Under the pieces are notes generated by a model that had not been told where the DNA came from, searched no databases, and saw only the letters and a program-made list of their open reading frames with translations. From NCBI RefSeq assembly GCF_900110685.1, contig NZ_FOES01000008.1:1-64000 (forward strand): a stretch of DNA of 64,000 bases, written 5' to 3'. Within the stretch, counting starts at the first letter, position 1. Each line of letters opens with the position of its first letter. Of this stretch, positions 4,756 through 63,565 are shown piece by piece. The position numbers and the translations under genes were made by a program. This DNA comes from Piscibacillus halophilus. Lineage in GTDB: Bacteria; Bacillota; Bacilli; Bacillales; Alkalibacillaceae.

Positions 4756-4874
4756 GAATTTATGAGATGTTTCTTGAAATTTATGAGGTGTTCTTTGAAT
4801 TTTATGAGATGTTTTTGGGATTTTTTGATGCGTTTTTCTTAATTTATGGTACATTTGACTACATTTATGAGACA
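4756..4874. repeat. 21-bp degenerate tandem array A
   Basis: Six units share a TTTATGAGATG-like core. The core recurs at 4761, 4782, 4803, 4824, 4845 and 4866, exactly 21 bases apart each time with no slippage, although the rest of each unit varies. The approximate unit is AATTTATGAGATGTTTYTTG. The array fills the space between the typA terminator and the 3' end of the convergent ferritin-like gene, and its last unit touches that gene's stop region. Confidence 0.85.
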
Positions 4875-5309
4875 TTATTGAAAATGCGGGTCCATAAGTA
4901 AACGATCGATTTCTTCCATATGACCTGTTTCATCAGCGATCATATCATCGAGTTTAACAGCCAGTTCAGTCAACCTAAGTTCTTCAGCTTGTTTTTTGCG
5001 TTTTTCATAACGGTCAATGGTTGCTTTTTCTGCATCACGTGCAGCTTCAAGCATTTTCTTAACATCTGTCTCTTGAGGAACTGGTGCTGGTTCTACAGTC
5101 GGTGTTCCGCCTAATGATTTAATTTTTTCGGCTAAATAGAGAGCGTGACTTTGTTCATCTGAAATTTCGCTTTCGAAAAATGGTTTTAATGTTGCTCGAT
5201 ATAAACCGGATACGACTGCAGCGTTATTCGTATACATAATCGAAGCTGTATACTCATTACTTAAGTCTTCATTTAATCCATCAATTAGTTCTTTCATTTT
5301 TTGATCCAT
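4875..5309 (-). CDS. Ferritin-like diiron protein (bacterioferritin-type)
   Basis: This 144-residue four-helix protein carries all six ligands of a bacterioferritin-type diiron site at nearly canonical positions: Glu19 (NEYTAS), Glu52 and His55 (DEQSH), Glu94, Glu127 and His130 (DETGH). A role in iron oxidation/storage or peroxide protection is likely. It is slightly shorter than the roughly 158-residue Bfr, and the usual haem-binding Met near residue 52 is not evident, so a haem-free variant is plausible. AAGGGTGG precedes ATG 5309. It is monocistronic and convergent with typA. Confidence 0.8.
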   Translation of the reverse strand: MDQKMKELIDGLNEDLSNEYTASIMYTNNAAVVSGLYRATLKPFFESEISDEQSHALYLAEKIKSLGGTPTVEPAPVPQETDVKKMLEAARDAEKATIDRYEKRKKQAEELRLTELAVKLDDMIADETGHMEEIDRLLMDPHFQ

Positions 5310-5443
5310 AACGATCCACCCTTTCTAATTGAGTTCTAATAATGGTTTTCCCTGAATGGCGAGGAATAAACATTGACGATGCCTCATAAATAAATCCGAA
5401 TGTCCCACATATACGATACTTAATTAATCATTAGGTGCAATTA

Positions 5444-5472
5444 AAAGAGCCTCCCATCAGGAGAGGCTCTTG
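5444..5472 (-). terminator. Intrinsic terminator of the nuclease gene
   Basis: A stem AAGAGCCTC/GAGGCTCTT with a 9-base loop is followed, on the minus strand, by TTAATT. It lies a few bases beyond the nuclease stop codon. Confidence 0.8.
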
Positions 5473-5476
5473 TTCA

Positions 5477-8080
5477 TTATGAAGCGTTACGCTCGAATAA
5501 TTTAGTCAATTCATGATCGATTTTCTTAAGGTGAGCATCTTTACCACTGTTTTGATATTTGATTAAGGCTTTTTCGACTGAATGCATCACGGATTTAATG
5601 TGTTGTTCAGTGTTTCCGTTCGTTTCCACGGATTCATAGAGCTCTGTTTCCAACTTGTTTAGTAAAAATTCATTGCCATGTTGCTTCGCAATGTCAACTA
5701 ACTCAGTAGCTGAGAAGTTTAAAAATTGTGCTTCTACTACATCTTCAGCGTTTCTTGGCATCACTTTGTATTCATCATAGTTATAAGTTAAAACGCCTGT
5801 AATAGATTCATAGTATTGATTGGTTTCAACTAGATGGGTATCTGAATCAATGACAAAATGTCCATTTGAGTCATATGCCTGATAATTGTTAAAGCCATCT
5901 TCATCTTCAATGTAAAAATCCTTAATCGTTACAAGCTGACCTTCATATTCTTCTCCAACTTCATCAGATGTGATAATTTGAGGTTCTGGGAGGCCAACAT
6001 CTTCTTCAACAATTGAAATGTTGGATTCATTCGGTAGAATTTGCAATAAACCGAAATATTCTTCAGTACGTGCCTTAGCACTAATTCGATCGCCAACTTC
6101 GGCACCAAAATCACTTGCCCGTACGACAATACCAGCTGTGTCATCTTGAACATAGTAATTGTACATGCCGCCTGCGTAGAATGCTGCAGTAATGATACCT
6201 TCAATATGAACTCGTGTATCCAGTTCGGCATCACGAGCAGATTGAATGGTTTGAACAGGGAGCTCTTCCTTAAGGTCGTCTTCATGACGAGGCATTAATT
6301 TAAACTCATCAAAATTGTAGTCAACAACGCCAACAATTTCATCATAAGTTTTTCCAACTTCTAAGAATCCAGCATCATTATCAATAACGAATTCACCATC
6401 AGCATCACGAGCTGTGTAGTCATTGTATTGATTAACAGATAAAATTTCAACATCTTCCATTTTGACTAGTTGAGCTTCAATCGATTCACCAAGGTCTTGA
6501 GATGTAACCAAAGTAGGATTAATGGGTTCATCATTTTCTTCAATGATTTCAGCATTGGCATTTACGATTTGAAGCATGCCATAGTATTCATCTGTTACAC
6601 CGGATGCCATAATTTTGTCTCCAACGTTAGCTTCTAAGTCACCAGTACGAACCACTATTCCTGCCGTATGGTCTTGAACATAATAATTAGTTTGTCCGCC
6701 GCTTTCTACTTTATGAGTGATCGTACCTTCAATCGTAACATTCGTACCAAGTGGGGCAGTTCTAGCATCTGCAATAATTGAATCGCGTTCGAATGCTGGC
6801 TCATAGCCTTCATTTAAAGCTGTTAATTCATCTTCAAAGAAAATTCGTGCATCAACTGGTACCTCAGCCCAGTCGTTTGGCATATAGTAGAGCCCTGTTT
6901 CTGAGTTCGCAACATATCGATATAAAGCACGATCATCGTAACGAGAGCGGAACACAAAAGGTAATTCCATTAATGGAGTATCTTCTGACCAAATACCTCT
7001 ATGGTGATCTTTCGCTTCACGTACTGCATCTTGGTATTCTTGGTAAGTTTCTTCAGGTCCAATAGGCCAGATAAAGTATGTTGAAGCATAGCCTTGTCGA
7101 ACTAATTCTAAGTTAGTGTTTAGGTTATCGTCCTTACGAACAACTTCTGCAAGCACCCGACCATACGTATCAAGTGGTTCCTCGCCAACTTTGATGATCA
7201 CTTCATCGCCAGGTTGAATAAGTTCACTTAAATATTCAGTTGCTTGGTCACCGTGGTATTTTTGTGAATGGTTTGGATCTTCTAAAATCAAGTCTTCGTC
7301 ATAATCATTTTGGTGGTAAGTTTCTGGGGTGTCCATGTTTAAAAAGCGGATTGTTGTTTCACCTAAAATAGGTTCGTTTACATGAATAGTATCACCATCA
7401 ACGATACGATCGACGGTTCTAATGTATTCATCTTGAATGTCATCTTCTGGGGGTTCAACTTCTTCATGACTACCAAGATAATCAAAAGTATCTCTAGGAA
7501 AAGCAATCCATTCAACTGTAGGGTCAAAATCATCAGTTGCGTTCGTATCACCAGCTGCCACAGAGTAATCTCTTAGGAGTGTCATATCCTGTGTTTTATG
7601 TTGGGGGGTTCCCCAATAGCTACCAGGATCTTCTCCAACTTTTCCGATGGAATCGATGATATCTCCACTACGTGTTTCTTCATCATAGTTTTTAAATATA
7701 ACAATAGCATCATTACCGTTAAAGTTGTAGGCATACGATGTACCGGATACGTCTGCAACATCTAAAATGGCTTGGTCAGCTTGCCCATGAGCCATAACAA
7801 ATGTTTCACCTGGTTCTATGGTACCTGTTAAGTCAAGCTCATTTGCAAAACCATCGTCAGGTTCGAATGAAGCACCATTTGTAAATGTAACAATAGAATA
7901 AGGGGATAAATCAATAGACTCGCTTGTCCCGTTGTAAATTTCAATCGCTTTGTTATAACTACTACCTTCAATATACTCTGAAATGATTAAATCTTCGTGA
8001 GTGTCAGCGATTAGAGGTGTTAGGAGAAAAATACTACCGATAAGCGTGAAAAACGATACTAAACTAATGAATTTTTTCAC
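5477..8080 (-). CDS. Secreted multidomain nuclease (lamin-tail, SNase, OB-fold repeats)
   Basis: The 867-residue exported protein has a signal peptide (about 1-26), a lamin-tail domain (28-145, with ISEYIEGSSYNKAIEIYNG) and a staphylococcal-nuclease domain (220-365). The SNase catalytic set is complete: VDGDT (227-231), Arg245, Asp250 and Glu253 in MDTPE, and Arg308 in TYGRVLA. Two OB-fold repeats (about 434-602 and 612-783) share YYVQD..AGIVVR, and a charged helical tail follows. The layout recalls Bacillus YhcR, a Ca2+-dependent sugar-nonspecific nuclease, but there is no sorting signal, so it is probably released. Use of extracellular DNA as a nutrient is a reasonable inference. The start is GTG 8080 with AGGGAGG 8 bases upstream. 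Monocistronic. Confidence 0.85.
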   Translation of the reverse strand: MKKFISLVSFFTLIGSIFLLTPLIADTHEDLIISEYIEGSSYNKAIEIYNGTSESIDLSPYSIVTFTNGASFEPDDGFANELDLTGTIEPGETFVMAHGQADQAILDVADVSGTSYAYNFNGNDAIVIFKNYDEETRSGDIIDSIGKVGEDPGSYWGTPQHKTQDMTLLRDYSVAAGDTNATDDFDPTVEWIAFPRDTFDYLGSHEEVEPPEDDIQDEYIRTVDRIVDGDTIHVNEPILGETTIRFLNMDTPETYHQNDYDEDLILEDPNHSQKYHGDQATEYLSELIQPGDEVIIKVGEEPLDTYGRVLAEVVRKDDNLNTNLELVRQGYASTYFIWPIGPEETYQEYQDAVREAKDHHRGIWSEDTPLMELPFVFRSRYDDRALYRYVANSETGLYYMPNDWAEVPVDARIFFEDELTALNEGYEPAFERDSIIADARTAPLGTNVTIEGTITHKVESGGQTNYYVQDHTAGIVVRTGDLEANVGDKIMASGVTDEYYGMLQIVNANAEIIEENDEPINPTLVTSQDLGESIEAQLVKMEDVEILSVNQYNDYTARDADGEFVIDNDAGFLEVGKTYDEIVGVVDYNFDEFKLMPRHEDDLKEELPVQTIQSARDAELDTRVHIEGIITAAFYAGGMYNYYVQDDTAGIVVRASDFGAEVGDRISAKARTEEYFGLLQILPNESNISIVEEDVGLPEPQIITSDEVGEEYEGQLVTIKDFYIEDEDGFNNYQAYDSNGHFVIDSDTHLVETNQYYESITGVLTYNYDEYKVMPRNAEDVVEAQFLNFSATELVDIAKQHGNEFLLNKLETELYESVETNGNTEQHIKSVMHSVEKALIKYQNSGKDAHLKKIDHELTKLFERNAS

Positions 8081-8197
8081 TAAAGAAACCTCCCTAAATT
8101 ATAAGTACAGGTCTATTATAAAAGAAGAATAAACATAGTTGTTGTTAATTTTCAGTAAATTCATCGAATTGAGTCAAAAGTCACAGGTTTTTGTCAT

Positions 8198-8232
8198 AAA
8201 AAAACTGAGTACCTGTTAAAGGCACTCAGTTT
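8198..8232 (-). terminator. Intrinsic terminator of the binding-protein gene
   Basis: On the minus strand the stem AAACTGAGTGCC/GGTACTCAGTTT is followed by a run of T. It terminates the solute-binding protein gene that ends at 8243. Confidence 0.9.
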
Positions 8233-8242
8233 ATAGTAAGTC

Positions 8243-9877
8243 TTACTCTTCAATGTAAGCTTGTTTGATTTGGTAAATACCTTGAGCATTAATATCAAAG
8301 TCTTTAACGCTATCGCTCACACCAAGTAGATACTCTTGGTGGTGAACATAAAGCATTGGAGCAAGTTCTACTAACATTTCTTGAGCTTGAGTGTATAACT
8401 CTTGACGTGCTTCAGGATCTGTTTCACGACGAGCCTCATCAAGAATTTCATCTAACTCTTCGTCTGTTAAGAATGAACGGTTACCAGGGTCACCATGTTG
8501 TGATGAATGGAATAATGGGTACATTCCGTAGTCAGCATCAGATGTTACTGTAGACCAACCAAGAATGAACATGTCGTGTTCACCATTAGCTGTACGCTCT
8601 AAGTAAGCACCCCATTCAACTTCTTCAATCTTAACTTCGATACCAATTTCTTTTAATTGGTCTTGAATGGCAACAGCTGTGTCAACACGCTGTTCGTTAT
8701 CGTTAGTCCAGATTGTCGTTGTAAAACCATCTTCGTATCCAGCTTCAGCTAATAAATCTTTAGCTTTGTCTAAGTCATACTCTAAACCACTTACAGAGTC
8801 ATCATAACCGAATACAGGTGGTGCTAATGGTCCAATTGCAGGAATACCTACACCATTGTAAACACCTTGGATAATTTCATCTTTATCAATTGCATGAGAA
8901 ATAGCTTGACGTACACGAACATCATCAAAAGGTTCTTGTTCAACGTTAAAGCCTACGTATGATAAAGAAACAGATGGTGCTTGTAGAACACTAGCATCTT
9001 GCATACCTTCTACACGTGATACATTGTTTGGACCGATTGCATCAGCAACATGAGAAGTACCAGATTCAAGTTCAGCTACACGAGAGCTTTGCTCAGATAC
9101 TACTTTGAAAGTAGCCGTGTCTAGCTTAGCTTTTTCACCCCAGTAATCATCATAACGAGATACAACTACTTTCTCGCCAGGTGTCCACTCCTCAAATTCG
9201 AAAGGACCAGTACCTACAGGGTTTTGGTTAATGTAAGCATCAGGGTCGCCGCCTTCTTCCATTTGAGCATAATCTTCTTCAATAATTGCAGGACTCATAA
9301 TACCAGTACCATTATGTGCAAGGTTAGCTAATAATGGAGCATACGGGTATTCTAAGTTAAATCTAACTGTGTATTCATCTTCAACTTCTACACTCTCAAC
9401 AGCTTCGAATAAGAAAGCACGAGGAGAAGCGATTTCTTCGTCTACAAGTCGATCGAAGTTAGCTTTTACAGCTTCTGCATTTAATTCTTCACCATCATGG
9501 AATGTTACGCCTTCGCGGATTTTGAAATCCCATGTAGTTTCATCAACCTCTTCCCAGCTTTCCGCTAGTCCAGGCTGTACTTCTTGGTTCTCATCTAAAA
9601 CTGTTAAAGTTTCATAGATGTTTTCAGCAACGTTACTAGAAGGAACGTCATTAGAACCTTGAGTTGATAAAGATACAACGTCAGAACCGATTGAGATTAC
9701 TAAATCTCCACCAGAACCTTCGTCGCCGCCTTCAGCGTTTTCATCCTCGTTCTCAGAACCAGTCTCTTCACCATCATCAGTTGGTTCTTCTGGTTCGCCA
9801 TCGCCAGCACAAGCCGCTAAGACTAGTGATAGCATTAGCAATAGAGAAACGAGCCATAAAGTTTTGTTAAACTTCAT
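8243..9877 (-). CDS. ABC-importer substrate-binding lipoprotein, peptide/nickel family (family 5)
   Basis: The 544-residue lipoprotein has the lipobox LAAC (Cys23), then an acidic Glu/Asp/Gly linker (24-57), then a full SBP_bac_5 domain with NVAENIYETLTVLDE and DDVRVRQAISHAIDKDEI. It would sit on the outer face of the membrane and feed the divergent dppC-B-D-F permease and ATPases. The family takes up di- and oligopeptides, nickel or other small molecules, and the substrate cannot be read from sequence. The long acidic linker suits a salt-adapted cell. ATG 9877 has AAGGGGG upstream, and the -10 region is overlapped by an inverted repeat. Confidence 0.88.
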   Translation of the reverse strand: MKFNKTLWLVSLLLMLSLVLAACAGDGEPEEPTDDGEETGSENEDENAEGGDEGSGGDLVISIGSDVVSLSTQGSNDVPSSNVAENIYETLTVLDENQEVQPGLAESWEEVDETTWDFKIREGVTFHDGEELNAEAVKANFDRLVDEEIASPRAFLFEAVESVEVEDEYTVRFNLEYPYAPLLANLAHNGTGIMSPAIIEEDYAQMEEGGDPDAYINQNPVGTGPFEFEEWTPGEKVVVSRYDDYWGEKAKLDTATFKVVSEQSSRVAELESGTSHVADAIGPNNVSRVEGMQDASVLQAPSVSLSYVGFNVEQEPFDDVRVRQAISHAIDKDEIIQGVYNGVGIPAIGPLAPPVFGYDDSVSGLEYDLDKAKDLLAEAGYEDGFTTTIWTNDNEQRVDTAVAIQDQLKEIGIEVKIEEVEWGAYLERTANGEHDMFILGWSTVTSDADYGMYPLFHSSQHGDPGNRSFLTDEELDEILDEARRETDPEARQELYTQAQEMLVELAPMLYVHHQEYLLGVSDSVKDFDINAQGIYQIKQAYIEE

Positions 9878-9906
9878 TGTAGATTAGCCCCCTTAAATTT
9901 TGTATC

Positions 9907-9931
9907 GATTACACAATTATAGTATGTAATC
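9907..9931. promoter_or_regulatory. Inverted repeat over the binding-protein promoter
   Basis: GATTACA (9907-9913) and TGTAATC (9925-9931) form a perfect 7-bp dyad with an 11-base spacer. The spacer contains ATTATAG, which reads CTATAAT on the minus strand and serves as a -10 element for the gene starting at 9877. A repressor bound here would block that promoter. The regulator is unknown. Confidence 0.5.
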
Positions 9932-10049
9932 AGTTCTTAATATATATGATTTAAGTAAAAATATCAAGAAAATTTGCAAGGCTAAAACTATTTAAATTAC
10001 TGAAATAATTACCAAACAATTTTCTATATAATGTAGAAAAAAATAAAGT

Positions 10050-10078
10050 GAATTTCTAGGGAGCGATTAAAGAAATTC
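10050..10078. repeat. Inverted repeat GAATTTCT/AGAAATTC
   Basis: Perfect 8-bp arms are separated by 13 bases, within the 600-base divergent space between the binding-protein gene and the permease operon. A TATAAT at 10027-10032 lies just upstream. It could be an operator or a leader hairpin. Confidence 0.4.
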
Positions 10079-10118
10079 TATTAATTTCATTTTTAGAATT
10101 GAAAGAATCCAAAATAGG

Positions 10119-10149
10119 AATAAATATTCACATTGATCGAATATTTATT
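10119..10149. repeat. 11-bp perfect inverted repeat
   Basis: AATAAATATTC (10119-10129) and GAATATTTATT (10139-10149) are exact complements separated by 9 bases. Arms this long in a divergent regulatory region suggest a dimeric operator, though AT-rich DNA makes some dyads expected by chance. Confidence 0.45.
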
Positions 10150-10219
10150 AGAAACTATAATTTTCAAATTCAAGAACTATTTTTTGAAAAATCGACATAA
10201 ACTGAAAATTTAAACTTAT

Positions 10220-10233
10220 TGAAAGCGTTTACA
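10220..10233. promoter_or_regulatory. cre box (CcpA site)
   Basis: TGAAAGCGTTTACA matches the catabolite-response consensus TGWAANCGNTNWCA at every position. It lies about 110 bases upstream of the likely dpp promoter and some 340 bases from the divergent gene start. A second partial half, ACGGTTACA, follows at once. It implies carbon-catabolite control of the importer by CcpA. Confidence 0.75.
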
Positions 10234-10342
10234 AGAAAACGGTTACATACAAATCTTTATCAAAATTGATGACATCGCTATTATAAGGGGGAGTAGGTTT
10301 GATAGAGTGTAAGATTTACCATCGACAAATTTCGTAACCTTG

Positions 10343-10371
10343 TTGTAAAAAAACTAGAATAATTGTATTAT
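10343..10371 (+). promoter_or_regulatory. Candidate SigA promoter for the dpp operon
   Basis: TTGTAA (10343-10348) and TATTAT (10366-10371) are 17 bases apart, about 100 bases upstream of the first permease gene. This is the best promoter match in the forward direction in this interval. Confidence 0.5.
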
Positions 10372-10477
10372 GAAATATGAGTCTTTTCTTGGAAGGTCAC
10401 CACATAAATAGCTTGAATTTTCCGATTTTTGTTAAAAAAACTACTATTAATAAACAAATAGGGGAGGTTATGACAAC

Positions 10478-11377
10478 ATGAATGCTGAACAAGCGAGCAG
10501 CGAAGTGACACAAGTGCCTAAAGTTGATAGTCCACTAAAGAGAGCAATGAAAGATTTTTATAATAAGTTAAAGAAAAATAAGACAGCCTTATTCGGTGGC
10601 TATTTAATTATCTTTTTAATTGTTGTTGCAATTGTTGGTCCTTATTTGACAAGCTTTAACCCAAGCGAAACGGACTACTCAGTTAAATTACAAGGACCAT
10701 CTGCTGAACATTGGTTCGGAACAGATCACCACGGGCGTGATATATTTACACGTATTATTCATGGGTTAGGAATTACAATGGGGATTGGATTTTTCTCTAC
10801 ATTAATCGGCAGTATTGTCGGAATTTTCTTAGGTATTGTTTCCGGTTATTACGGTGGAAAAATTGACAGCGTCATTATGAGATTAATGGATATTCTTTTG
10901 GCCTTTCCAGGAATCTTACTAGCTCTAGCATTAATTAGTATTTTAGGGGCTAGTTTACAGAACGTTGTTATTGCAATTGCTATTTTCGCAATACCTACTT
11001 TTGCTCGTATTGTGAGAGGTTCGACTCTGGCAACGAAAAACTTAGAATATATCGATGCGATGCGTGCGTTAGGTGCATCTGATATCCGTATTATTTTCAA
11101 ACACATTTTTCCCAATATTTTGTCTCCGATTATAGTCCAAGCAAGTTTATTTATCGCGACAGCTGTTCTATCAGCGAGTGGTTTATCATTCCTAGGACTT
11201 GGGGTGCAACCACCTTCGCCAGAATTAGGTGCGATTCTAAGTGATGGTAAAGACTTTATGTGGGACGCAGGTCATATTGCTTTATTCCCAGGATTAGGGA
11301 TTATGGTAATCGTTCTTGCGTTTAATGTGTTCGGTGATGGATTACGTGACGCTTTAGATCCAAAAATGAAAAATTAG
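10478..11377 (+). CDS. dppC: Dipeptide-type ABC transporter permease, DppC-like
   Basis: The 299-residue permease has the OppC_N segment (residues 25-80, AHWFGTDHHGRDIFTRIIHG nearby), five further membrane helices and the EAA loop ALGASDIRIIFKHIFPNI near residue 195. GGGGAGG precedes ATG 10478. It is the first gene of dppC-dppB-dppD-dppF; many relatives place the B-type permease first, so the order here is reversed. It pairs with the DppB-like protein and is energised by DppD/DppF. The dpp symbols denote family, not proven substrate. Confidence 0.85.
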   Translation: MNAEQASSEVTQVPKVDSPLKRAMKDFYNKLKKNKTALFGGYLIIFLIVVAIVGPYLTSFNPSETDYSVKLQGPSAEHWFGTDHHGRDIFTRIIHGLGITMGIGFFSTLIGSIVGIFLGIVSGYYGGKIDSVIMRLMDILLAFPGILLALALISILGASLQNVVIAIAIFAIPTFARIVRGSTLATKNLEYIDAMRALGASDIRIIFKHIFPNILSPIIVQASLFIATAVLSASGLSFLGLGVQPPSPELGAILSDGKDFMWDAGHIALFPGLGIMVIVLAFNVFGDGLRDALDPKMKN

Positions 11378-11392
11378 GAAGTAGGTGCAAAC

Positions 11393-12313
11393 ATGTTTCA
11401 GTTTATTGTTAGAAGGTTGTTTCAATTAATTCCCGTATTATTAGGGGTTACCATACTAGTATTCTCTTTAATGCACCTATCTCCGGGTAATCCAGCGCAT
11501 ATCATTGCCGGAGAAAGTGCACCAGAAAGCACAGTCCAGCAGATTGAAGAACGACTTGGATTGAACGATCCAATTCCTGTTCAATATGCTAATTTCTTAA
11601 AAGATGTCGTAACGCTAGATTTTGGTAACTCTTGGAGAACCAGTTTACCAGTTAGTACTGAACTGTGGCCAAAGTTTTGGGTTACATTTGAACTAGCAAT
11701 ATATAGTACCATTTTTAGTATTTTCTTAGGTTTAATCGCTGGTATTATTTCAGCCGTTAGACAATATTCCGTAGCAGACGTATCAATTATGTTGGTTGCA
11801 TTATTTGGTTTATCAATGCCGAACTTCTGGTTAGGACTTATGCTAATGCAATGGTTCTCGATCAATTTAGGTTGGTTACCACCAACAGGTTGGGGAACGC
11901 CAGAACAGATTATCATGCCTGTATTTACGTTAGGTACGATGGGTGCAGCCGTGATCGCTCGTATGACTCGTTCCAGTATGCTTGATGTTATTACTCAAGA
12001 CTATATTCGGACGGCTCGAGCGAAAGGTTTAAAAGAAAAAGTAGTTATTTATCGCCATGCACTTAAAAATGCATTAATCCCAGTTGTAACGGTAGTAGGT
12101 TTACAATTTGGTGGTTTACTAGCAGGTGCAGTACTGACGGAATCCGTATTTGCGATTAACGGTATGGGTAAATTAGTCGTTGACCGTATTTTAGCTAGAG
12201 ATTTCCCTGTCGTTCAGGCAGCAGTACTTGTTATGGCAGTAGTTTTCGTATTTGTAAACTTAATTGTTGATGTTTCGTATAAATTCTTAAACAAACGAAT
12301 CGATTTAGATTAG
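11393..12313 (+). CDS. dppB: Dipeptide-type ABC transporter permease, DppB-like
   Basis: The 306-residue integral membrane protein has the typical opening [21 protein letters not shown], the N-terminal block HLSPGNPA and the EAA-type loop [19 protein letters not shown] (about residue 206). It forms the translocation pore with the preceding DppC-like subunit. It starts 15 bases after dppC and ends one base before the upstream limit of the dppD reading frame, so the genes are cotranscribed. Confidence 0.87.
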
Positions 12314-12338
12314 TTTGCCAGTAGAGAGAGGTGAAATC

Positions 12339-14352: not shown

Positions 14353-14364
14353 AAGGAATTATTT

Positions 14365-19027: not shown

Positions 19028-19063
19028 AAGCTTTTGCGCGTTGGTCGCGCAAAAGCTTTTTTT
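19028..19063 (+). terminator. Intrinsic terminator of the BCCT gene
   Basis: A 13-bp perfect stem AAGCTTTTGCGCG/CGCGCAAAAGCTT is followed by TTTTT. Array B starts about 10 bases later. Confidence 0.93.
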
Positions 19064-19072
19064 CACAATCTG

Positions 19073-19207
19073 TTTCGCCGAAAATAAATGCTGTTTCGCT
19101 AAAAATTCAGATAGTGTCGCCAAAATAAAGCTCAATTTCGCTATAACGGAACGACATCTCGCTAAAAAGACATATACTTTCGCCAAAAACAGCCCAGCTC
19201 TCGCGAA
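19073..19207. repeat. 21-bp degenerate tandem array B (TTTCGCTAAAA core)
   Basis: The TCGC core occurs at 19075, 19096, 19117, 19138, 19159, 19180 and 19201: seven copies, each exactly 21 bases apart. The core reads TTTCGCTAAAA or TTTCGCCAAAA in the clearest copies and the remaining 10 bases are not conserved. It lies between the BCCT terminator and the thioesterase gene, both on the plus strand. Confidence 0.88.
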
Positions 19208-24904: not shown

Positions 24905-24942
24905 AATCGCGCATAAATGTAGACCTCGGATGGCTTATAAAA

Positions 24943-27278
<2,336 letters not shown>

Positions 27279-35189: not shown

Positions 35190-35227
35190 AAAATCCCCTT
35201 AGCCTTGGATATGGCTAAGAGGATTTT
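35190..35227 (+). terminator. Intrinsic terminator of lipM-lipA
   Basis: AAAATCCCCTTAGCC/GGCTAAGAGGATTTT, a long stem with one mismatch. Array D begins about 12 bases beyond it. Confidence 0.88.
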
Positions 35228-35239: not shown

Positions 35240-35618
35240 AAAACGTGTCTATAGAAATTGAAAACGTGTCGATAGAATCGGAAAACATGACCATAGAAAT
35301 TGAAAACGTGTCGATAGAATCGGAAAACATGACCATAGAAATTGAAAACGTGCCTATAGAGTCGGAAAACATGCCGATAGAATTTGCAAACGTGTCGATA
35401 GAATTCGAAAACATGCCGATAAAATAGAAAAACATGTCCATAGATTCCTAAAACATGACTTTGAATACTTATATGATTGAAAAATACACCCATAGAATTT
35501 AGAAAAGCCCCTATAGATTTAAGAAATGCGCTTATAGATTTTAAAAACCCACCTATAGATTCTAGAAATACTCTTATAGAATTCAAATAAGCACCCATAG
35601 AAATAATAAATACATTTA
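35240..35618. repeat. 21-bp degenerate tandem array D (ATAGAATT core), about 18 units
   Basis: ATAGA or a one- to three-base variant occurs at 35251, 35272, 35293, 35314, 35335, 35356, 35377, 35398, 35419, 35440 and 35461, then at 35492, 35513, 35534, 35555, 35576, 35597 and 35618. Every step is 21 bases except one of 31, i.e. 21 plus about one helical turn. The first part also shows a 42-base super-period of alternating units (GTGTCGATAGAATCGG and ATGACCATAGAAATTG). The second part is more diverged. The array fills the convergent space between the lipA and amtB terminators. Open frames across it arise because 21 is a multiple of three and have no ribosome sites. Confidence 0.9.
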
Positions 35619-35656
35619 TAAAAAAAGTAACACAGACCACAAAAGTCTGTGTTACT
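35619..35656 (-). terminator. Intrinsic terminator of glnK-amtB
   Basis: AGTAACACAGAC/GTCTGTGTTACT stem with a 7-base loop and a run of T on the minus strand. The last unit of array D touches its T run. Confidence 0.92.
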
Positions 35657-43470: not shown

Positions 43471-44619
43471 ATGGTTATTTTTAACAAGAAGCTTTTAGTA
43501 ATGTTAATTGCAATCCTTTCACTAGGCTTATTCTTAGCCGCTTGTGGTGGTGGAGATAGTGAAGAAAGTACTGGTGGCGAAGAAGCTAACGGTGGAGAAG
43601 AAGCTAACGGTGGAGAAGAATCAAACGAAGAGTCTGAAGGTGAGTCAAGCGAAGGCTCTGGCGATGGTGAATTTGAAGAACAAGAATGGCAAATCGTAAC
43701 TGAGGAGCTTCAAGGTGAAGTTCAGTACGAATATGCGGCAGAATTTGCTAGCCGTATTGAAGAAAAAACAGATGGAGCAATCACTGTTGAGCCTTTAGAA
43801 TATGGGGCATTAGGTAGTGAGGTTAACCAAGCACAGCTTTTACAACAAGGCGGTGTTGAAATGGCCGTTATGTCACCGGGTTTCACAGGAGGACAGGTGC
43901 CTGATGGACAAATTTTCTCTCTACACTATTTCTTCCCGGCAGACCCTGAATTAACTCAGGAAGTATTAACAAATAGTGAAGCTTTAAATACAGATTTAAG
44001 AGCAAAATATGAAGAGCATAATATTTCACCTTTATCTTTCTGGACGGAAGGATCCATGGCTTGGACTAGTAATGTAGGTATTGAGTCACCTTCTGATTGG
44101 GAAGGTCTAAACATGCGTGTTCAAGAGTCGCCACTAATGCGTGAGACTTATGACGCGTATGGTGCAACTGTACAGTCGTTAAGCTGGGGTGAGCTATACA
44201 CAGCTTTAGACCGTGAAACAGTTGACGCACAGGAAAACCCACTATTCTTTATTGAATCAGCAAGTTTCCACGAAGTACAAGATACGGTTACCATTTCGAA
44301 CCATAATAACTATATTGCCATGACGACTGTTAATACGGATTGGTATAATGGCCTTTCAGATGCCGAAAAAGATTTAATTGATGAAACAGTCGCAGAAATG
44401 CAAGAATGGGTATTCGATGAGCAGAAGCAACAAAACGAAGCAGGTCTTCAAGCAATTGAAGAAGACACTGAAATTATCCGTCTAACAGATGAGCAGATTG
44501 CTGAGTTTAAAGAAGCAGCTGAACCTGTTCACGAATTCTACCGAAATGAAGTAGAAGGAATCGATCCAGACTTATATGACAAGTTAAAAGAAGAAATTGC
44601 TGAAATTACAGGTGAATAA
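43471..44619 (+). CDS. TRAP transporter solute-binding lipoprotein (DctP)
   Basis: 382 residues with lipobox LAAC (Cys25), an acidic linker containing 18-base in-frame repeats (GGEEAN, GGEEAN, GGEESN), then a DctP domain with EVNQAQLLQQGGVEMAVMSP, MRVQESPLMRETYDAYGA and LYTALDRETVDAQENP. The arginine in NMRVQ normally contacts a carboxylate of the ligand, so an organic acid is likely; its identity is unknown. In Gram-positive cells it must be membrane-tethered, as the lipobox shows. A strong terminator follows. Confidence 0.9.
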   Translation: MVIFNKKLLVMLIAILSLGLFLAACGGGDSEESTGGEEANGGEEANGGEESNEESEGESSEGSGDGEFEEQEWQIVTEELQGEVQYEYAAEFASRIEEKTDGAITVEPLEYGALGSEVNQAQLLQQGGVEMAVMSPGFTGGQVPDGQIFSLHYFFPADPELTQEVLTNSEALNTDLRAKYEEHNISPLSFWTEGSMAWTSNVGIESPSDWEGLNMRVQESPLMRETYDAYGATVQSLSWGELYTALDRETVDAQENPLFFIESASFHEVQDTVTISNHNNYIAMTTVNTDWYNGLSDAEKDLIDETVAEMQEWVFDEQKQQNEAGLQAIEEDTEIIRLTDEQIAEFKEAAEPVHEFYRNEVEGIDPDLYDKLKEEIAEITGE

Positions 44620-54222: not shown

Positions 54223-54229
54223 AGTAATA

Positions 54230-56826: not shown

Positions 56827-57017
56827 ATCATCACTCCTAACTACTATTCTTAGATCGTATCGAACTATAATATCGGCATAGTATTCCACCTTTTAACACT
56901 TTAGGAAATAGACTGAATTGGAGTTATTTTCGATCAATTTGAGAAGTCGCCTTTACTTTATAATCAAGCCGCTTTATGGCAAAATAGATTTAGACTAGTA
57001 TTGAGGGAGGTTTCGCG

Positions 57018-57539
57018 ATGAAGTCGTTTGACGATAAAGACAATAAGAAAAGTAATCAATTTACGATTATGAAAGATGATCCCATTGATGGTCACCCAGG
57101 TTATACCGGTGGAGGAGCCATCAGTTTAGAAAATATGTCTCCATTAATTGTTGACCCAAATGAGGACCGTGTATGGGTGGATATGGGTGCGATGCATGCT
57201 CGAAGTGAAGTGGAGAAAAGAATAAAATTTGTAACCGAAAAAGAAGAAGTTCCAAATGGAAAACCTTATTGGATTGTTTGGGTGACGGTCGAACGCAAAG
57301 AAGAGGGACCTTATTATCACGGTGTGGCAGCAAGTTATTTAGAAGTAGACCGTGAGGCACGTCGTGGGTTTAAAATTTTAGCTGAACACGTCAACCGAAT
57401 GGACAAATCGCTTAAAGGTCGTGTCGTTGTGGATCAAATGGATGATCATTCGAAGAAATTATTAGGAGATTTCCTTAAAGATTTCAATGAGACTTACTGG
57501 GAAAATTCAACAGATGAATTGAAACAAGCGTTCGCATAA
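57018..57539 (+). CDS. ywhD: YwhD family protein
   Basis: 173 residues with conserved blocks DDPIDGHPGYTGGGAISLEN, VWVDMGAMHARSEVEKRIKF and PYYHGVAASYLEVD, as in B. subtilis YwhD, a soluble protein of unknown function. GGGAGG precedes ATG 57018. It is convergent with pbpG, its usual neighbour. Confidence 0.88.
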   Translation: MKSFDDKDNKKSNQFTIMKDDPIDGHPGYTGGGAISLENMSPLIVDPNEDRVWVDMGAMHARSEVEKRIKFVTEKEEVPNGKPYWIVWVTVERKEEGPYYHGVAASYLEVDREARRGFKILAEHVNRMDKSLKGRVVVDQMDDHSKKLLGDFLKDFNETYWENSTDELKQAFA

Positions 57540-57645
57540 TTATGAATGAATTGTGAACATTAATCTTTTACATTGTAAGATTAGAAAATCATTTGTAAAA
57601 TAAAACTAAACATGGGTTTTTACGCACATGTTTATTAGGACAAAT

Positions 57646-57690
57646 AAAAGGGGCTAGCCATTTGTGGCCAGCCCCTTTTATTTTTATAAC
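57646..57690. terminator. Bidirectional terminator between ywhD and pbpG
   Basis: AAAAGGGGCTAGCC/GGCCAGCCCCTTTT stem with T-rich flanks on both sides. A smaller ACATG/CATGT hairpin for ywhD lies at 57606-57633. Confidence 0.88.
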
Positions 57691-57694
57691 TATA

Positions 57695-59638
57695 TCACCT
57701 ACTACACGCTTCTTTTGGTTGAGTCCCTTTAATAAAATACATTAATCGAGTTTCACCTTCGCATGCAGGACCCTCTAGTTTTCCTGTGATCGGATCAACC
57801 TGTACACCTACGACTCCGGAAGGCGCTTCAAACGTTTCAAGTGGTAGGTCCTCATGTATTTGCTCCATATACTTAGCCCAAACTTGTTTAGCTACACGTG
57901 TATCTTGAATTTTTTCTATTTCTCTATTGTCATCGTAACCAGTCCAAATAGCGGTCGTATATTGTGGACTATAACCAATCATCCAGCTGTCATTGGGTGT
58001 TGTACCTGACTTACCTGCGTATTGATGGGTCAGCTGGTCTGCGATATTCCCACCTGTTACACTCATATAATCGCTTAATCGGTTATCAAACATCCCTGTA
58101 AGCATATGGGTCAGCACAAACGCATGATTTTCCTCTAACATTCGTTCAGGTTTTTCAGATTGGTGTTGATATACGACATTCCCATCTCGGTCAACAATTT
58201 TGTCAATGACATAAGGGTCTACTGACCACCCCTCATTAGCTAAAACACTGTAAGCTTCAGCCATCTCAAGTGGAGAAACAGTCGCAGTACCTAATGCCAA
58301 AGAAAGAACCGGTTGAAGCTCTTGATCAATCCCAAAAGCGTGAGCAGCTTCTACCAAGTTTTCAGGATCTATATATTGGTTTGTTTTTAGTGCAAAAATA
58401 TTATCCGATACCGCTACTGCTTGAGCAAGTGTAACAGGGCGGTCTGCATAATGATCGCCAAAGTTAGCAGGGCTGTATGTTTTGCCGTTTTCAAGTGTAA
58501 AGGTTGTTTGGCGACTTTCAAGTGTGGTGGATGGTGTAAAACCATAAACTAAGGCTGCATAGTAGAGAAACGGTTTAAATGTAGAGCCTGTCATCCGTTT
58601 AGCTTGAGTTACCCGGTTAAAAGGTGTCTGATCAAAGTTTCTTCCACCTTGCATGGCGACAATTTTTCCGCTCTTAGGATCAATCGTGACAGCTCCAATT
58701 TGCAGCTCTTCTGAATCCTCGGGTAATTCTTCTTGAATGGTTTGTTCAAGTTTTTGCTGTGCTTCTTGATTAATCGTGGTGTACACTTGATAGCCTTGTC
58801 CATCTAATGATTGACGGTCAATTCCTAAAATCTTTGAGGCTTCTTTCATGGCATATTCAGTTAAATATTTACCAACCTCCGTTTCTTGTTCTGAAGCGGT
58901 TACGGAGACACTTAATTCTTTTTGCTTAGCTCGGTTCATCGCTGTTTCAGTGATTTTCCCTGTTTCATGCATACGTTCTAAAATCCATTTCTGACGATCA
59001 ATCGCATTTTCATATGAGACAAGGGGTGAATAGACAGATGGACCTTTCGGAATTCCAGATAATAAAGCAGCTTCTTCTAGCGTTAAATCATCGGCATTTT
59101 TATCGAAATAAAATTGACTTGCAGCTTGAATACCATATTGTCCATGTCCGAAATAAATCGTATTTAAATAGCCTTCTAAAATCTCATTTTTGTCTTGAAA
59201 AATTTCTAAACGTAAGGCAATTAGAGCTTCTTGGATTTTTCGTTTCCAAGTCTTTTGGTTCGTTAAAAATACATTTCGCGCGTACTGTTGAGTAATGGTA
59301 CTAGCTCCTTGCAGTTTATCCATGGAGAGAATGTTATAATAGGTGGCACCTAAAATCCGTTTTACGTCGAAACCAAAATGTTGATAAAAATGCTCATCCT
59401 CAGCGGCAAGAAAAGCATCTAATACATGTGGAGAGATATCATCTAATTCTACCCAAAATCTATTTTGAACCCCCTGTTCTACTGCTAGGACTTCACCATC
59501 TTGATCATATACAATGGTATTTTCATCAAGGTTGATCTCAGGTGGTCCTTGAAGAACAGAGTACACAAGTATGACAACTCCAGCTGAGATGGTAAAGACT
59601 AATAGAGCAATAATAGGTGTTAATATTTTTTTAATCAT
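57695..59638 (-). CDS. pbpG: Class A penicillin-binding protein, PBP2d-like
   Basis: 647-residue bifunctional cell-wall synthase: N-terminal membrane anchor (7-30), GT51 transglycosylase domain with the catalytic Glu in AAEDEHFYQHFGFD and QGASTITQQYARN, then a transpeptidase domain with GSTFKP (Ser-x-x-Lys), SDN and KSGTT. In B. subtilis PbpG acts in the germ-cell wall of spores, alongside ywhD in the map as here. AGGAGAGGTG precedes ATG 59638. Monocistronic. Confidence 0.92.
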   Translation of the reverse strand: MIKKILTPIIALLVFTISAGVVILVYSVLQGPPEINLDENTIVYDQDGEVLAVEQGVQNRFWVELDDISPHVLDAFLAAEDEHFYQHFGFDVKRILGATYYNILSMDKLQGASTITQQYARNVFLTNQKTWKRKIQEALIALRLEIFQDKNEILEGYLNTIYFGHGQYGIQAASQFYFDKNADDLTLEEAALLSGIPKGPSVYSPLVSYENAIDRQKWILERMHETGKITETAMNRAKQKELSVSVTASEQETEVGKYLTEYAMKEASKILGIDRQSLDGQGYQVYTTINQEAQQKLEQTIQEELPEDSEELQIGAVTIDPKSGKIVAMQGGRNFDQTPFNRVTQAKRMTGSTFKPFLYYAALVYGFTPSTTLESRQTTFTLENGKTYSPANFGDHYADRPVTLAQAVAVSDNIFALKTNQYIDPENLVEAAHAFGIDQELQPVLSLALGTATVSPLEMAEAYSVLANEGWSVDPYVIDKIVDRDGNVVYQHQSEKPERMLEENHAFVLTHMLTGMFDNRLSDYMSVTGGNIADQLTHQYAGKSGTTPNDSWMIGYSPQYTTAIWTGYDDNREIEKIQDTRVAKQVWAKYMEQIHEDLPLETFEAPSGVVGVQVDPITGKLEGPACEGETRLMYFIKGTQPKEACSR

Positions 59639-59848
59639 GGGGCACCTCTCCTGTATTTCGACATTAATTGCTCTTATTAGTATGTAAAAATTGGCATTAA
59701 TTTAAACATTGAAGACTTCTATTTAACCGTATTGTTCGATATAATCAGTTTGAAGAATTTCATTCAGACTCGTTTTATGGCAAAATATATAGGTATCTAA
59801 AAATATTTGAATTACGGTTGATTGGTTAAGATAGAAAGGAAGATTGGT

Positions 59849-60289
59849 TTGTCGAATGAAACAATCCCCGTTCATATAAAGATAGAAACTGAAATTGTGG
59901 ATGATCAAAATGGTAATGAGAATATATCCAGAACAGAAAATGGTTCATATGTTCATAGAGGAAAGGTTCATATGATTAAATATAAAGAGGAAATGGAAGA
60001 CCTAGGCCTCGTCCATACAACGATTGTCATTCAAGACGATCGCGTATCTATTAAACGTGAAGGTTCATTGCAAATGCACCAAGTATTCCGCATTGGATCG
60101 AGTACGGAATGTGTATACCATCATCCGTACGGAAAATTCCGCATGGAAACTACTACACATCATATGCAATTTGTAAAAGGAATTGGAAACCGTTCCGGCC
60201 GGATCTATTTAAATTATGATGTGGCATTGAATGATCAAGAGCCGAGACGCCATACATTTGAGTTACACTTTCAAGAGGAGGTTGCCTAA
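59849..60289 (+). CDS. ywiB: YwiB/DUF1934 beta-barrel protein
   Basis: 146 residues, strand-rich, with the DUF1934 blocks VHIKIETEIVDD, YKEEMEDLGLVHTTIVI and GKFRMETTTHHMQ. A calycin-like barrel of unknown ligand. TTG 59849 is 6 bases after AGGAAG and gives the family length; TTG 59822 is less likely. argS follows with no gap, and its ribosome site lies inside ywiB. Confidence 0.87.
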   Translation: MSNETIPVHIKIETEIVDDQNGNENISRTENGSYVHRGKVHMIKYKEEMEDLGLVHTTIVIQDDRVSIKREGSLQMHQVFRIGSSTECVYHHPYGKFRMETTTHHMQFVKGIGNRSGRIYLNYDVALNDQEPRRHTFELHFQEEVA

Positions 60290-61960
60290 ATGAACATAGT
60301 AGGTCAAATCGAACAAACATTAAAACAAGAAATTGAATCCGCTGTTCTGAAAGCGGGTCTCGCAACTCAGGAAGAAATGCCTGATGTTGTTTTAGAAACA
60401 CCAAAAGATAAAGCACATGGTGATTATGCAACAAATATGGCCATGCAGTTAGCTCGCATTGCAAAAAAGGCACCACGTCAAATAGCTGAAGATCTCGTGG
60501 AGCATTTAGATACGGAAAAAGCGTCAGTTAAACAAGTTGATATTGCTGGTCCCGGTTTTATTAACTTTTTTATTGATCAGTCATCTTTAACACAAGTAGT
60601 CGATACCATTTTAAATCAAGGTGAAGCATACGGGACATCGAATGCAGGTAATGGAAAACGCGTACAAATCGAGTTTGTGTCAGCTAACCCGACTGGAACC
60701 CTTCATTTAGGACATGCTCGTGGGGCGGCGTTTGGTGATGCATTAGCGAACGTGATGGAAAAAGCGGGTTTCGATATTGAACGTGAATATTACATTAATG
60801 ATGCAGGTAATCAAATTGATAATCTTGCGCAATCCATTAATGCTCGTTATTTCCAAGCGTTAGGTCAAGAGATGGCCATGCCAGAAGATGGTTACCAAGG
60901 GCAAGATATTATTGATTTAGCTAACGATTTAGTCGCAGAGCATGCGGACCGTTTTACAAAAATGGATGAGAGTGATCGTTTATTAGAATTTCGTCACTAT
61001 GGTTTAAAACATTTACTACATCGAATTGAGAAAGACCTTGCAAATTATCGCGTGACATTTGATTCTTGGTTCTCTGAAACGTCATTATACGAACAAAACT
61101 TAGTGGCTAATGCTGTTGAGCAGTTACGTGAAAAAGGTTACGTCTATGAGGCAGATGGCGCAACATGGTTTAAATCTACAGATTTTGGTGATGACAAGGA
61201 CCGTGTATTGGTCAAACAAGACGGTTCTTACACTTATTTAACACCCGATATTGCTTATCACTTAAATAAAATTCAGCGTGGCTTTGATGAGTTAATAAAT
61301 GTTTGGGGAGCGGACCACCACGGTTATGTAGCACGTATGCATGCGGCAATCCAAGCATTAGGCTATTCTAAAGACGTTTTAGATATTAAAATTACCCAGA
61401 TGGTCAACCTGTTTGAAAACGGAGAAAAAGTGAAAATGAGTAAGCGTACAGGTAAGGCTGTCACGATGAAAGAACTGATTGAAGAGGTCGGTTTAGATGC
61501 GACTCGTTATTTCTTTATCATGCGCTCGAATGACGCTCATTTAGATTTTGATTTAGACTTAGCTAAAACTCAATCTAATGAAAACCCAGTTTATTACGTA
61601 CAATATGCACATGCTCGTATTTGCAGTATGTTACGCCAAGCTGAGGAAAAAGGCGTTGATATTAATGCTGAGGTAGACACATCTTTACTTCAGGCAGAAA
61701 AAGAAGTTGCGTTATTGAAGCGGTTAGGGGATTATCCTCAAGTTGTTGCAGATGCAGCTGAAAAACGTACGCCTCACCGTATACCTCAGTATGTTTTTGA
61801 CTTAGCATCTGATCTTCATAGTTTTTACAATGCAGAAAAGGTTATTGATTTAGACAATATGGAATTAACGCAAGCTAGAATTACTTTAATGAAGGCTGTA
61901 CGTGTCGTGATCCAAGATGCCTTAAAATTAATTGGTGTTGAAGCACCAGAAAAAATGTAA
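60290..61960 (+). CDS. argS: Arginyl-tRNA synthetase
   Basis: 556 residues, the Bacillus-type length. The N-terminal Add-1 domain, class I signature [28 protein letters not shown] and the C-terminal anticodon-binding domain ([13 protein letters not shown] onward) are all intact. It charges tRNA-Arg. No T-box leader is visible; translation is probably coupled to ywiB. Confidence 0.97.
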
Positions 61961-61968
61961 CCATAAAG

Positions 61969-62005
61969 AAAGCAGGCAATCCTTATAGGGATGCCTGCTT
62001 TTTCT
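61969..62005. terminator. Terminator between argS and gerQ
   Basis: AAGCAGGCAATCC/GGGATGCCTGCTT stem followed by TTTCTT; probably used from both sides. Confidence 0.85.
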
Positions 62006-62796
62006 TATCCGAATGGGTATTGATATTCAATTTCTTCGTCAAACACGATGTAGTCAAGGTAAATCATTAATAGTAGGTACCAACGATTATTCTCAGTATC
62101 AGATACGACGATATGATCTTTTCCAGCTTCTTCTATGATACCTCTAAAAACTCTAGCGTTCCATTCGTCATTATTTTCAAATGTAAAGTAAAGTGTAGCA
62201 GGCTTGCCACGGTTCAAACGAAGAATGTTCTCGATATAAGAAAGTTCGCGTGGAAGCTGCTGTCCTCCTGGAAAAGCTCCTTGACCCATCATAGTTCCGG
62301 GAGGCATTGGTTGCCCTTGTTGCTGTCCTTGTTGTTGTCCTTGTTGTTGTCCCCCCTGTTGACCGTTTTGTGGGCCGTTTTGCATCATACCAGGCATGCC
62401 TTGCATCTGTCCTTGTGGCCCACCTTGCATCATACCAGGCATCATTTGCCCTTGTTGCCCCGTGCCCAGCATTTGCCCTTGCTGGACACCTTGCACCATA
62501 CCTGGCATTTGCTGTCCTTGTGGACCACCCATACCTTGCATAGAACCTTGCTGGTTACCCATGTAAGGCATCGTTCCTTGTGGCCCACCGTTATTAGGTG
62601 AACCTCCATACATTCCTTGCACTTTTCCACCCATTTGTCCTTTTCCTGGAAGGGTCATTTTCTTTCCGCTACCTCCTGGCCATTTTTTATCTCCGCCTGG
62701 CCACTTACCAGATGAACCTTTCAGATTGCTAGGGTTGTTGAAAGATTTTTTATCTGGTAGCTTTCCACCTTGATATTTACCTTTTGACTGATCCAA
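62005..62796 (-). CDS. gerQ: Spore coat protein GerQ
   Basis: 263 residues. The C-terminal 85 residues (LPRELSYIENILRLNRGKPA to the end) are the conserved GerQ domain, with FRGIIEEAGKDHIVVSD and YLLLMIYLDYIVFDEEIEY. The N-terminal 175 residues are Gly/Gln/Met/Pro-rich and repetitive (GQMMPGM, QGQMQGM, QQQGQQQGQ). B. subtilis GerQ is near 180 residues, so this region is expanded. GerQ is cross-linked into the coat by transglutaminase and is needed for CwlJ activity in germination. The start is TTG 62796 with GGAGGT 9 bases upstream. cwlJ lies just upstream on the same strand. Confidence 0.92.
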   Translation of the reverse strand: MDQSKGKYQGGKLPDKKSFNNPSNLKGSSGKWPGGDKKWPGGSGKKMTLPGKGQMGGKVQGMYGGSPNNGGPQGTMPYMGNQQGSMQGMGGPQGQQMPGMVQGVQQGQMLGTGQQGQMMPGMMQGGPQGQMQGMPGMMQNGPQNGQQGGQQQGQQQGQQQGQPMPPGTMMGQGAFPGGQQLPRELSYIENILRLNRGKPATLYFTFENNDEWNARVFRGIIEEAGKDHIVVSDTENNRWYLLLMIYLDYIVFDEEIEYQYPFG

Positions 62797-62828
62797 TGAT
62801 CATCTACCTCCTATATTAAAATAAAAAT

Positions 62829-63260
62829 TTATTGATCACCAAACAAGTTAGGACATTCACCTGGTTGAGGAGTATAAAAACAATGAGATTTGAAGCGGCC
62901 AACATTCCATTGTCCGAACCATTGGGGTGGACATTCTCCACCAGGCATGAAAAACCATAGTGAGTCATCTCCTGGATCGAACTCTTCTCCTCCAACCACT
63001 CTCCTGGCTAAACGTATTTCTTGTTCACGTGCTCTTTGATAAAAATATGAGTCTTGAATAGCTTCAAATCCACCTGGAGATTGATAGATCATATCTAGTA
63101 GTGAATTGATATTCTCAAAATCTAAACAATCGGCTCGTACGCGGTTAACACCAACGTTACCGACTAAGAGCATACCTAACTGACCATCTCCCTCAGCTTC
63201 AGCACGCATAAGTCTTGCTAATTCTTTGAGCTCTGCTTCGTTATAAGCTATGACTGCCAA
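62829..63260 (-). CDS. cwlJ: Spore cortex-lytic enzyme CwlJ
   Basis: 143 residues, typical CwlJ with the Hydrolase_2 fold: LARLMRAEAEGDGQLGMLLV (catalytic Glu) and GNVGVNRVRADCLDF, then SHCFYTP near the end. It has no signal peptide, as expected for a coat-located enzyme that hydrolyses cortex peptidoglycan during Ca-DPA germination and needs GerQ. The start is TTG 63260 with AGAGGTGG 6 bases upstream. Forms an operon with gerQ, 32 bases downstream. Confidence 0.94.
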   Translation of the reverse strand: MAVIAYNEAELKELARLMRAEAEGDGQLGMLLVGNVGVNRVRADCLDFENINSLLDMIYQSPGGFEAIQDSYFYQRAREQEIRLARRVVGGEEFDPGDDSLWFFMPGGECPPQWFGQWNVGRFKSHCFYTPQPGECPNLFGDQ

Positions 63261-63399
63261 CTAATACCACCTCTTTAATCCCCATCACTAGTTCATTTAT
63301 ATGATTAAATGGGTAAATGTTGATATGACTCGCTTGTACTTTTTAATTAACTTGGTAAAAAGGGGGAAGAGAGAAATCACGATTGATACGAATTTGTTA

Positions 63400-63565
63400 G
63401 AAGGAAGTATTTGCAGGTATTAAGAATTTACTTGTGGTTCTTGGAGATTTACTTGCAAGAAACTCGAGTTCATTTGCAATCTTTAAACTTCTATTTGCAA
63501 AAACGTTAAGTTTACTTGCGGTTATAGAAGAATTAATTGCGAAAATTGGAAGGGTATTTGCATTC
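63400..63565. repeat. 21-bp degenerate tandem array E (TTACTTGC core)
   Basis: TTGC or TTGT occurs at 63411, 63432, 63453, 63474, 63495, 63516, 63537 and 63558, eight units with an exact 21-base step. The preceding bases are mostly ATT or TTAC. The array abuts the hemQ terminator on one side; the other 140 bases toward cwlJ are free and should hold its sporulation promoter. No ORF crossing the array has a ribosome site. Confidence 0.88.

What the first reader, a model, noticed from the sequence alone, without database searches (positions are those of the whole stretch)
4756..63565. A family of five intergenic arrays with exact 21-bp (or 20-bp) periodicity
Arrays at 4756-4874, 19073-19207, 24943-25058, 35240-35618 and 63400-63565 consist of 6, 7, 6, about 18 and 8 units. 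Within each, a short core recurs at a fixed step (21, 21, 20, 21, 21 bases) while the other bases drift. Conserved spacing with poor sequence identity points to selection on register: two helical turns on DNA or seven codons or 21 nt on RNA. Four of the five directly abut an intrinsic terminator and all lie behind at least one gene 3' end; none lies between divergent promoters. Each locus has its own core, as if units amplify locally. I know of no named element class that fits.
Basis: partly seen in the sequence, partly recalled or inferred. Interest (0 to 1): 0.9.

Follow-up and report, generated by a model that had tools for sequence, protein, structure and literature searches.

The report
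Fork-polar 21-bp phased intergenic arrays
Between the genes of this Bacillus relative lie dozens of arrays in which a short DNA word recurs every 20 or 21 bases, about two turns of the helix, while the bases in between have drifted freely; arrays sharing a word tend to face one way relative to DNA copying, and they likely serve as docking rows for a still unidentified DNA-binding protein.

Summary
The arrays are real: all five show the stated 21- or 20-bp pitch, and periods 20/21/42 dominate intergenic arrays in this Piscibacillus-like genome and in relatives. They are not locus-specific: six core families recur at 2-10 loci each in the half genome examined, and related cores recur across the order. 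In family B, 35 units keep TCGC in 35 of 35 while neighbouring spacers match at chance (31.0% vs 29.4%), yet all 27 measured core distances are 21 or 42. At an orthologous Fictibacillus array, cores differ 2.4-fold less than spacers. So core and register are constrained. Orientation follows replication rather than transcription: family A is 10/10 leading; in seven other genomes CGATAAA arrays are 18/24 leading and TCGCTCAA arrays 20/25 lagging (p=1.7e-4; not a blind test). Arrays are enriched between convergent genes but not beside terminators. Orthologous sites are empty or hold other cores. Best explanation: same-face docking arrays for an unidentified DNA-binding factor; factor and role are unproven. 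Closest published class seen: staphylococcal STAR elements.

The parts
4740..4886 (-). array 1, seven 21-bp units (first degenerate), core AAACATCTCATAAAATTCAA on the minus strand, between convergent genes (TypA and a Dps-like gene)
   Evidence: genes; resembles family A but was not counted in it (it would be a lagging-strand exception)
4707..4742 (+). intrinsic-terminator-like hairpin next to array 1
   Evidence: read
19067..19207 (+). array 2, seven 21-bp units, family B core TTTCGCYAA
   Evidence: empty at the orthologous site of P. salipiscarius
19028..19063 (+). intrinsic-terminator-like hairpin just before array 2
   Evidence: read
24942..25061 (+). array 3, six 20-bp units, family C core TCGCTCAA, between hutU and the ribosome-binding site of hutI; no terminator
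   Evidence: genes
35240..35618 (+). array 4, about 18 units of 21 bp (42-bp higher order), family A core CNATAGAA, between convergent lipA and amt
   Evidence: genes
35190..35227 (.). terminator-like hairpin left of array 4
35626..35656 (.). terminator-like hairpin right of array 4
63402..63569 (.). array 5, eight 21-bp units, core ATTTGCAA / TTGC (weakest of the five)
   Evidence: score 14.4
63576..63606 (-). intrinsic-terminator-like hairpin next to array 5
   Evidence: read

Best explanation
These are arrays of an 8-10-base core repeated at an exact 20- or 21-base pitch with freely drifting spacers, and they likely serve as same-face docking rows for a DNA-binding protein that has not been identified. 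Shown by the calls: the pitch, the constraint on core and register, recurrence of cores at many loci and in several genera, gain and loss between species, orientation tied to replication, and enrichment between convergent genes. Inferred: one protein, or a small family whose recognition drifts between lineages, binds the cores; because they sit about two helical turns apart, bound copies line up on one face of the DNA and support one another; the row likely acts as a passive, polar block or boundary where opposed transcription units and replication forks meet. The consistent but lineage-dependent direction suggests that arrays are copied between loci by a fork-coupled, strand-keeping process.
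For: Core distances without a period filter: B 27 of 27 at 21/42, C 23 of 23 at 20, F 13 of 14, A 59 of 72. B spacers saturated (31.0% vs 29.4% by chance, 29 neighbouring pairs) while TCGC is kept in 35 of 35 units; with 5.0-7.8 substitutions per indel in Fictibacillus intergenic DNA the chance of keeping length is put at 0.6% per B pair and 15% per C pair. Orthologous Fictibacillus units: core 59/560, spacer 159/618, flank 206/1129 differences; Alkalibacillus strains 0/30 vs 7/80. Polarity: own 27 of 30 arrays agree with their family majority, p=2.4e-4; other genomes 18:6 vs 5:20 leading:lagging, p=1.7e-4, and 9:1 vs 1:6 in convergent gaps, p=0.004. CGATAAA triplets 24 of 120 genomes of the order vs 6 of 149 of the phylum, fitting an order-restricted factor.
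Against: No binding protein was found or sought beyond a few families. At least seven unrelated-looking cores in one genome need several factors or a loose one. Direction is not universal: TCGCTCAA is mostly leading in the own genome (4 of 5) and mostly lagging in Fictibacillus (20 of 25), G067 goes against its group (1:2), and array 1 would break family A. One orthologous pair shows little core constraint (L079/L093, 9/46 vs 12/34). Arrays come and go at orthologous sites, so no single one looks essential. A array distances include 13 of 72 off the pitch. Predicted curvature adds little.
Confidence: 0.45

Rival explanations
1. Selfish minisatellites: non-functional repeats that arise by slippage and spread between loci at replication forks in a strand-keeping way, giving shared cores, unit gain and loss and lineage-bound polarity.
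For: Presence/absence and different cores at orthologous gaps; loss of exactly one unit; polarity direction differs between lineages; no array is conserved in all relatives seen.
Against: Neutral drift should hit core and spacer alike and shift the spacing; B and C show neither, and orthologous cores change less than spacers and flanks. The one single-strand transposase family tested (Y1_Tnp) is absent from the own genome.
Confidence: 0.3
2. RNA-level elements: the repeats work in transcripts (protein or small-RNA binding, RNase sites).
For: Arrays sit at gene ends or between co-transcribed genes (array 3); in the own genome A and D are mostly sense in co-directional gaps (4:1, 3:0).
Against: F is antisense (0:2) and B mixed (1:2); in other genomes sense/antisense is 6:3 and 6:8 and does not separate the cores (p=0.40) while replication does. 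No Rfam match in the window.
Confidence: 0.1
3. Binding sites of LytTR-type regulators, whose direct repeats are (recalled) 9 bp with about 12 bp between.
For: Same geometry as family B (9+12); four LytTR genes in the own genome.
Against: The recalled LytTR doublet motif has 33 matches with up to 2 mismatches in the window (21 expected) and none of them lies in an array; four genes are few for seven cores; arrays are not at promoters.
Confidence: 0.05
4. Miniature CRISPR-like arrays: a 9-bp repeat into which 11-12-bp spacers are newly inserted.
For: B spacers are unrelated to one another at fixed length.
Against: A units are duplicated with their spacers (42-bp order); orthologous units change by point substitutions; spacers are too short to trace and no nuclease neighbour was looked for.
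Confidence: 0.04
5. Traces of a type IIL (MmeI-like) enzyme that cuts about 20/21 bases from its site (recalled).
For: The reach equals the pitch, with its 20/21 wobble.
Against: No MmeI methyltransferase domain in the own genome.
Confidence: 0.01

Closest known systems
STAR elements of staphylococci (PMC3532100: abstract, Background and Discussion read)
   Same: Short conserved core repeated in intergenic DNA with variable spacers, many loci per genome, different locations in different species, change in repeat number, function unknown.
   Different: STAR has one GC-rich 14-bp core spaced by at least 40 bp; here there are many cores at a fixed 20-21-bp pitch, and no STAR core lies in the arrays.
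Iterons of plasmid origins (recalled)
   Same: Tandem direct repeats with about two helical turns per unit, bound by a protein.
   Different: Chromosomal, many loci, beside housekeeping genes; array 4 has no plasmid match.
LytTR regulator sites (recalled)
   Same: Direct repeats of about 9 bp with a 21-bp pitch.
   Different: Two copies at promoters, other sequence; here up to about 18 units, mostly at gene ends.
Polar fork-barrier or terminator arrays such as Tus/Ter, Fob1 or TTF-I sites (recalled)
   Same: Protein-bound sites, polar to replication, often at gene ends.
   Different: Here direction is bound to family and lineage rather than universal; no factor or fork pausing known.

Membership tests
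STAR element | core T(G/A/T)TGTTG(G/T)GGCCC(C/A) | tested here: not met
   two chance-level matches (2 mismatches) in the window, none in an array
STAR element | cores separated by at least 40 bp | tested here: not met
   pitch 20-21 bp
STAR element | intergenic, many loci, species-specific locations | tested here: met
LytTR binding site | recalled LytTR 9-mer doublet | tested here: not met
   no match inside the five arrays with up to 2 mismatches
Plasmid iteron | related sequence on plasmids | tested here: not met
   array 4 only: no match in 72,556 plasmid records; other arrays not searched
REP/RAYT or IS200-type element | Y1 transposase in the genome | tested here: not met
   PF01797 absent from the own genome, present in 12 of 22 genomes searched
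Known structured RNA | Rfam match | tested here: not met
   no match at gathering score in the window
Protein-docking array | a protein binds the core in vivo | not testable with these tools
   needs pull-down or footprinting

The most novel reading that the evidence does not exclude
A Bacillales-wide class of helically phased, replication-polar DNA arrays: rows of swappable cores, read on one face of the helix by a fast re-specifying DNA-binding family, that mark borders between opposed transcription units and are copied between loci at the fork. It would be a bacterial counterpart of eukaryotic barrier arrays.
Probability: 0.3. Interest if true: 0.9.

Novelty: new variant of a known kind. 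Interest (0 to 1): 0.74.

Why it matters
Short intergenic repeats are usually set aside as minisatellites. Here register and core hold while the bases between are randomised, and orientation follows the replication fork, so a physical, DNA-level function becomes testable in harmless bacilli. If a binding factor is found, it would be a widespread chromosome-organising or boundary system overlooked so far; if none is, the arrays would be a satellite with an unexplained hold on helical register.

Tried and rejected
Rejected or weakened: special terminator association; translation, because family C has a 20-bp pitch; MmeI-like enzyme; Y1 transposase; plasmid or phage kin of array 4; known RNA families. 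A shortage of arrays on C29, C42 and C48 (1 in 477 kb vs 29 in 869 kb) is not claimed, because most other contigs were picked for array-4 hits. In contigs not picked for that (C35, C42, C48, C24, C63, C49, C58; 520 kb) five intergenic arrays pass. Mapping contigs to the chromosome with marker genes gave no pattern (gyrB lies on C38, which has four arrays). A viral-contig scan for CGATAAA triplets listed 51 stretches, not followed up. Literature: ten searches of open-access papers; four returned nothing, five listed only papers that look unrelated from the listing, and one led to the STAR paper (parts read). Absence from print is therefore not established.

Full report
What was checked. The window lies in a 2.99-Mb draft genome of 83 contigs whose hutI protein is 93% identical to that of Piscibacillus salipiscarius. 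Tandem Repeats Finder reports three of them, autocorrelation four, a column-profile score all five. In 400 intergenic regions of an 826-kb sample, 20/21/42 is the best period of 23 of 30 arrays at score >=10, with 1 hit in three rounds of shuffles. In 80 loci of named relatives (10 kb either side of hutI), 30 of 54 intergenic arrays have period 20, 21 or 42, in 21 loci, and none of 19 or 22.

Families. In 1.46 Mb (49%) of the own genome the cores fall into A (CNATAGAA, 10 arrays), B (TTTCGCYAA, 6), C (TCGCTCAA, 20-bp pitch, 5), D (TGCAAATA, 3), F (GATAATAAA, 4, one overlapping a called gene by 62%) and G (CTAGACAA, 2), plus one E array (TATGAA). Array 1 was not counted. TCGCTCAA triplets, with gaps of 5-35 allowed, occur in 13 of 397 genomes of the order (7 of 136 genera), and within the family in the own genome but none of 21 others; all 13 matches in the own genome have steps of 20 or 40. 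In the fetched TCGCTCAA loci of other genomes 91 of 96 core distances up to 70 are 20, 21 or 40-42 (some loci overlap, so arrays are counted more than once, and two of the 13 genomes show 40-42-bp repeats only). CGATAAA triplets occur in 24 of 120 genomes of the order and in 6 of 149 of the phylum, none of the latter with two successive steps of 20, 21 or 40-42. Not all 24 are arrays of this kind: in their fetched loci 89 of 131 distances are 20, 21 or 40-42, the rest being other repeats or chance.

Constraint. Without a period filter, distances between exact cores in clusters are 21/42 in 27 of 27 for B, 20 in 23 of 23 for C, 21/42 in 13 of 14 for F and in 59 of 72 for A. Neighbouring B spacers agree at 31.0% against 29.4% expected by composition (29 pairs), C spacers at 46.3% (20 pairs). 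Intergenic DNA of four Fictibacillus pairs shows 5.0-7.8 substitutions per indel, so a saturated spacer should rarely keep its length: the estimate is 0.6% per B pair and 15% per C pair (a ratio borrowed from another genus). At an orthologous array of five Fictibacillus genomes, core sites differ in 59 of 560 comparisons, spacer sites in 159 of 618, flanks in 206 of 1129 (pairs are not independent). One genome lacks exactly one 21-bp unit, another keeps about three. Two Alkalibacillus haloalkaliphilus genomes differ at 0 of 30 core and 7 of 80 spacer sites; against A. filiformis 1/18 vs 18/52 and 1/18 vs 14/52. One pair, L079/L093, shows little contrast (9/46 vs 12/34).

Turnover. At the array-2 site P. 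salipiscarius has 63 bp without an array, Aquisalibacillus has another core, three other loci are empty. At hutU-hutI, Filobacillus and three Alkalibacillus loci carry other cores and five loci none. Upstream of window 20412 the own genome and P. salipiscarius have no array, while Aquisalibacillus, Filobacillus and Tenuibacillus each have one with a different core. At the lipA 3' end the own genome, P. salipiscarius and an Alkalibacillus carry arrays with related GATA(G)A cores, the last at 20 bp (read by eye).

Polarity. The leading strand was read from local GC skew. Own genome, leading:lagging: A 10:0, B 1:5, C 4:1, D 2:1, F 0:4, G 0:2; 27 of 30 agree with their family majority (p=2.4e-4; heterogeneity p=8e-5). 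Families were defined from the same data. Seven other genomes were then examined with 9-19-kb stretches: CGATAAA arrays 18:6 (G127 14:3, G045 3:1, G067 1:2), TCGCTCAA arrays 5:20 (G066 2:5, G208 2:9, G373 1:5, G103 0:1), p=1.7e-4; without weak skews 15:5 vs 4:17, p=5e-4. This was not blind: 3-kb flanks of some of the same loci had shown the trend; other genomes with matches were not fetched; and a few gaps hold two counted clusters. In convergent gaps, where either gene could set the sense, the split is 9:1 vs 1:6 (p=0.004). Sense/antisense in co-directional gaps (6:3 vs 6:8) does not separate the cores (p=0.40). The direction is lineage-bound: TCGCTCAA is mostly leading in the own genome and lagging in Fictibacillus-type genomes.

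Place. Of 29 gene pairs with an array, 10 are convergent, 17 co-directional, 2 divergent, against 123, 1014 and 130 of pairs without (convergent p=3.4e-4, divergent p=0.76, crude gene caller). Terminators near gene ends are about as frequent without arrays.

Reading. Constrained core and pitch with free spacers, a pitch of two turns, and indifference to transcription point to a protein bound along one face of the DNA; lineage-bound polarity points to copying between loci that keeps the strand relative to the fork. Both steps, and the boundary role, are inference. A neutral satellite explains turnover and polarity but not the constraint.

Compared with the known. STAR elements (PMC3532100, abstract and two sections read) are the nearest published class seen, but core and spacing fail. 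LytTR sites share geometry only. No Rfam, plasmid or phage kin was found in the searches made (the last two with array 4 only).

Noticed in passing
window 43573-43620: 18-bp repeat (GGTGGAGAAGAAGCTAAC, 2.7 copies) inside a long open frame (43471-44619).
   Followed up: no
window 62310-62361: 12/24-bp repeat (GTTGTCCTTGTT) inside an open frame on the minus strand (62005-62796).
   Followed up: no
genome G261 (unnamed, same order): The reversed control pattern (core AACTCGCT) has 34 and 56 matches there, so it may be rich in arrays with yet another core.
   Followed up: no
genome G127 (unnamed, same order), L312-L325: Very rich in CGATAAA arrays (9 and 38 triplet matches); 8 of its 17 counted clusters lie between convergent genes, all 8 on the leading strand.
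   Followed up: partly
L042:5983-6178: A different intergenic repeat in a Rossellomorea genome, 39-bp period, with GAGAACCGTCCC.
   Followed up: no
L079:128-342: A nearly uniform 20-bp array (ATTTATGCTCGTTC core) in Fictibacillus barbaricus, five almost identical units, perhaps a young array.
   Followed up: no
viral contigs L251-L301: 51 viral stretches hold CGATAAA triplets with gaps of 11-16.
   Followed up: no
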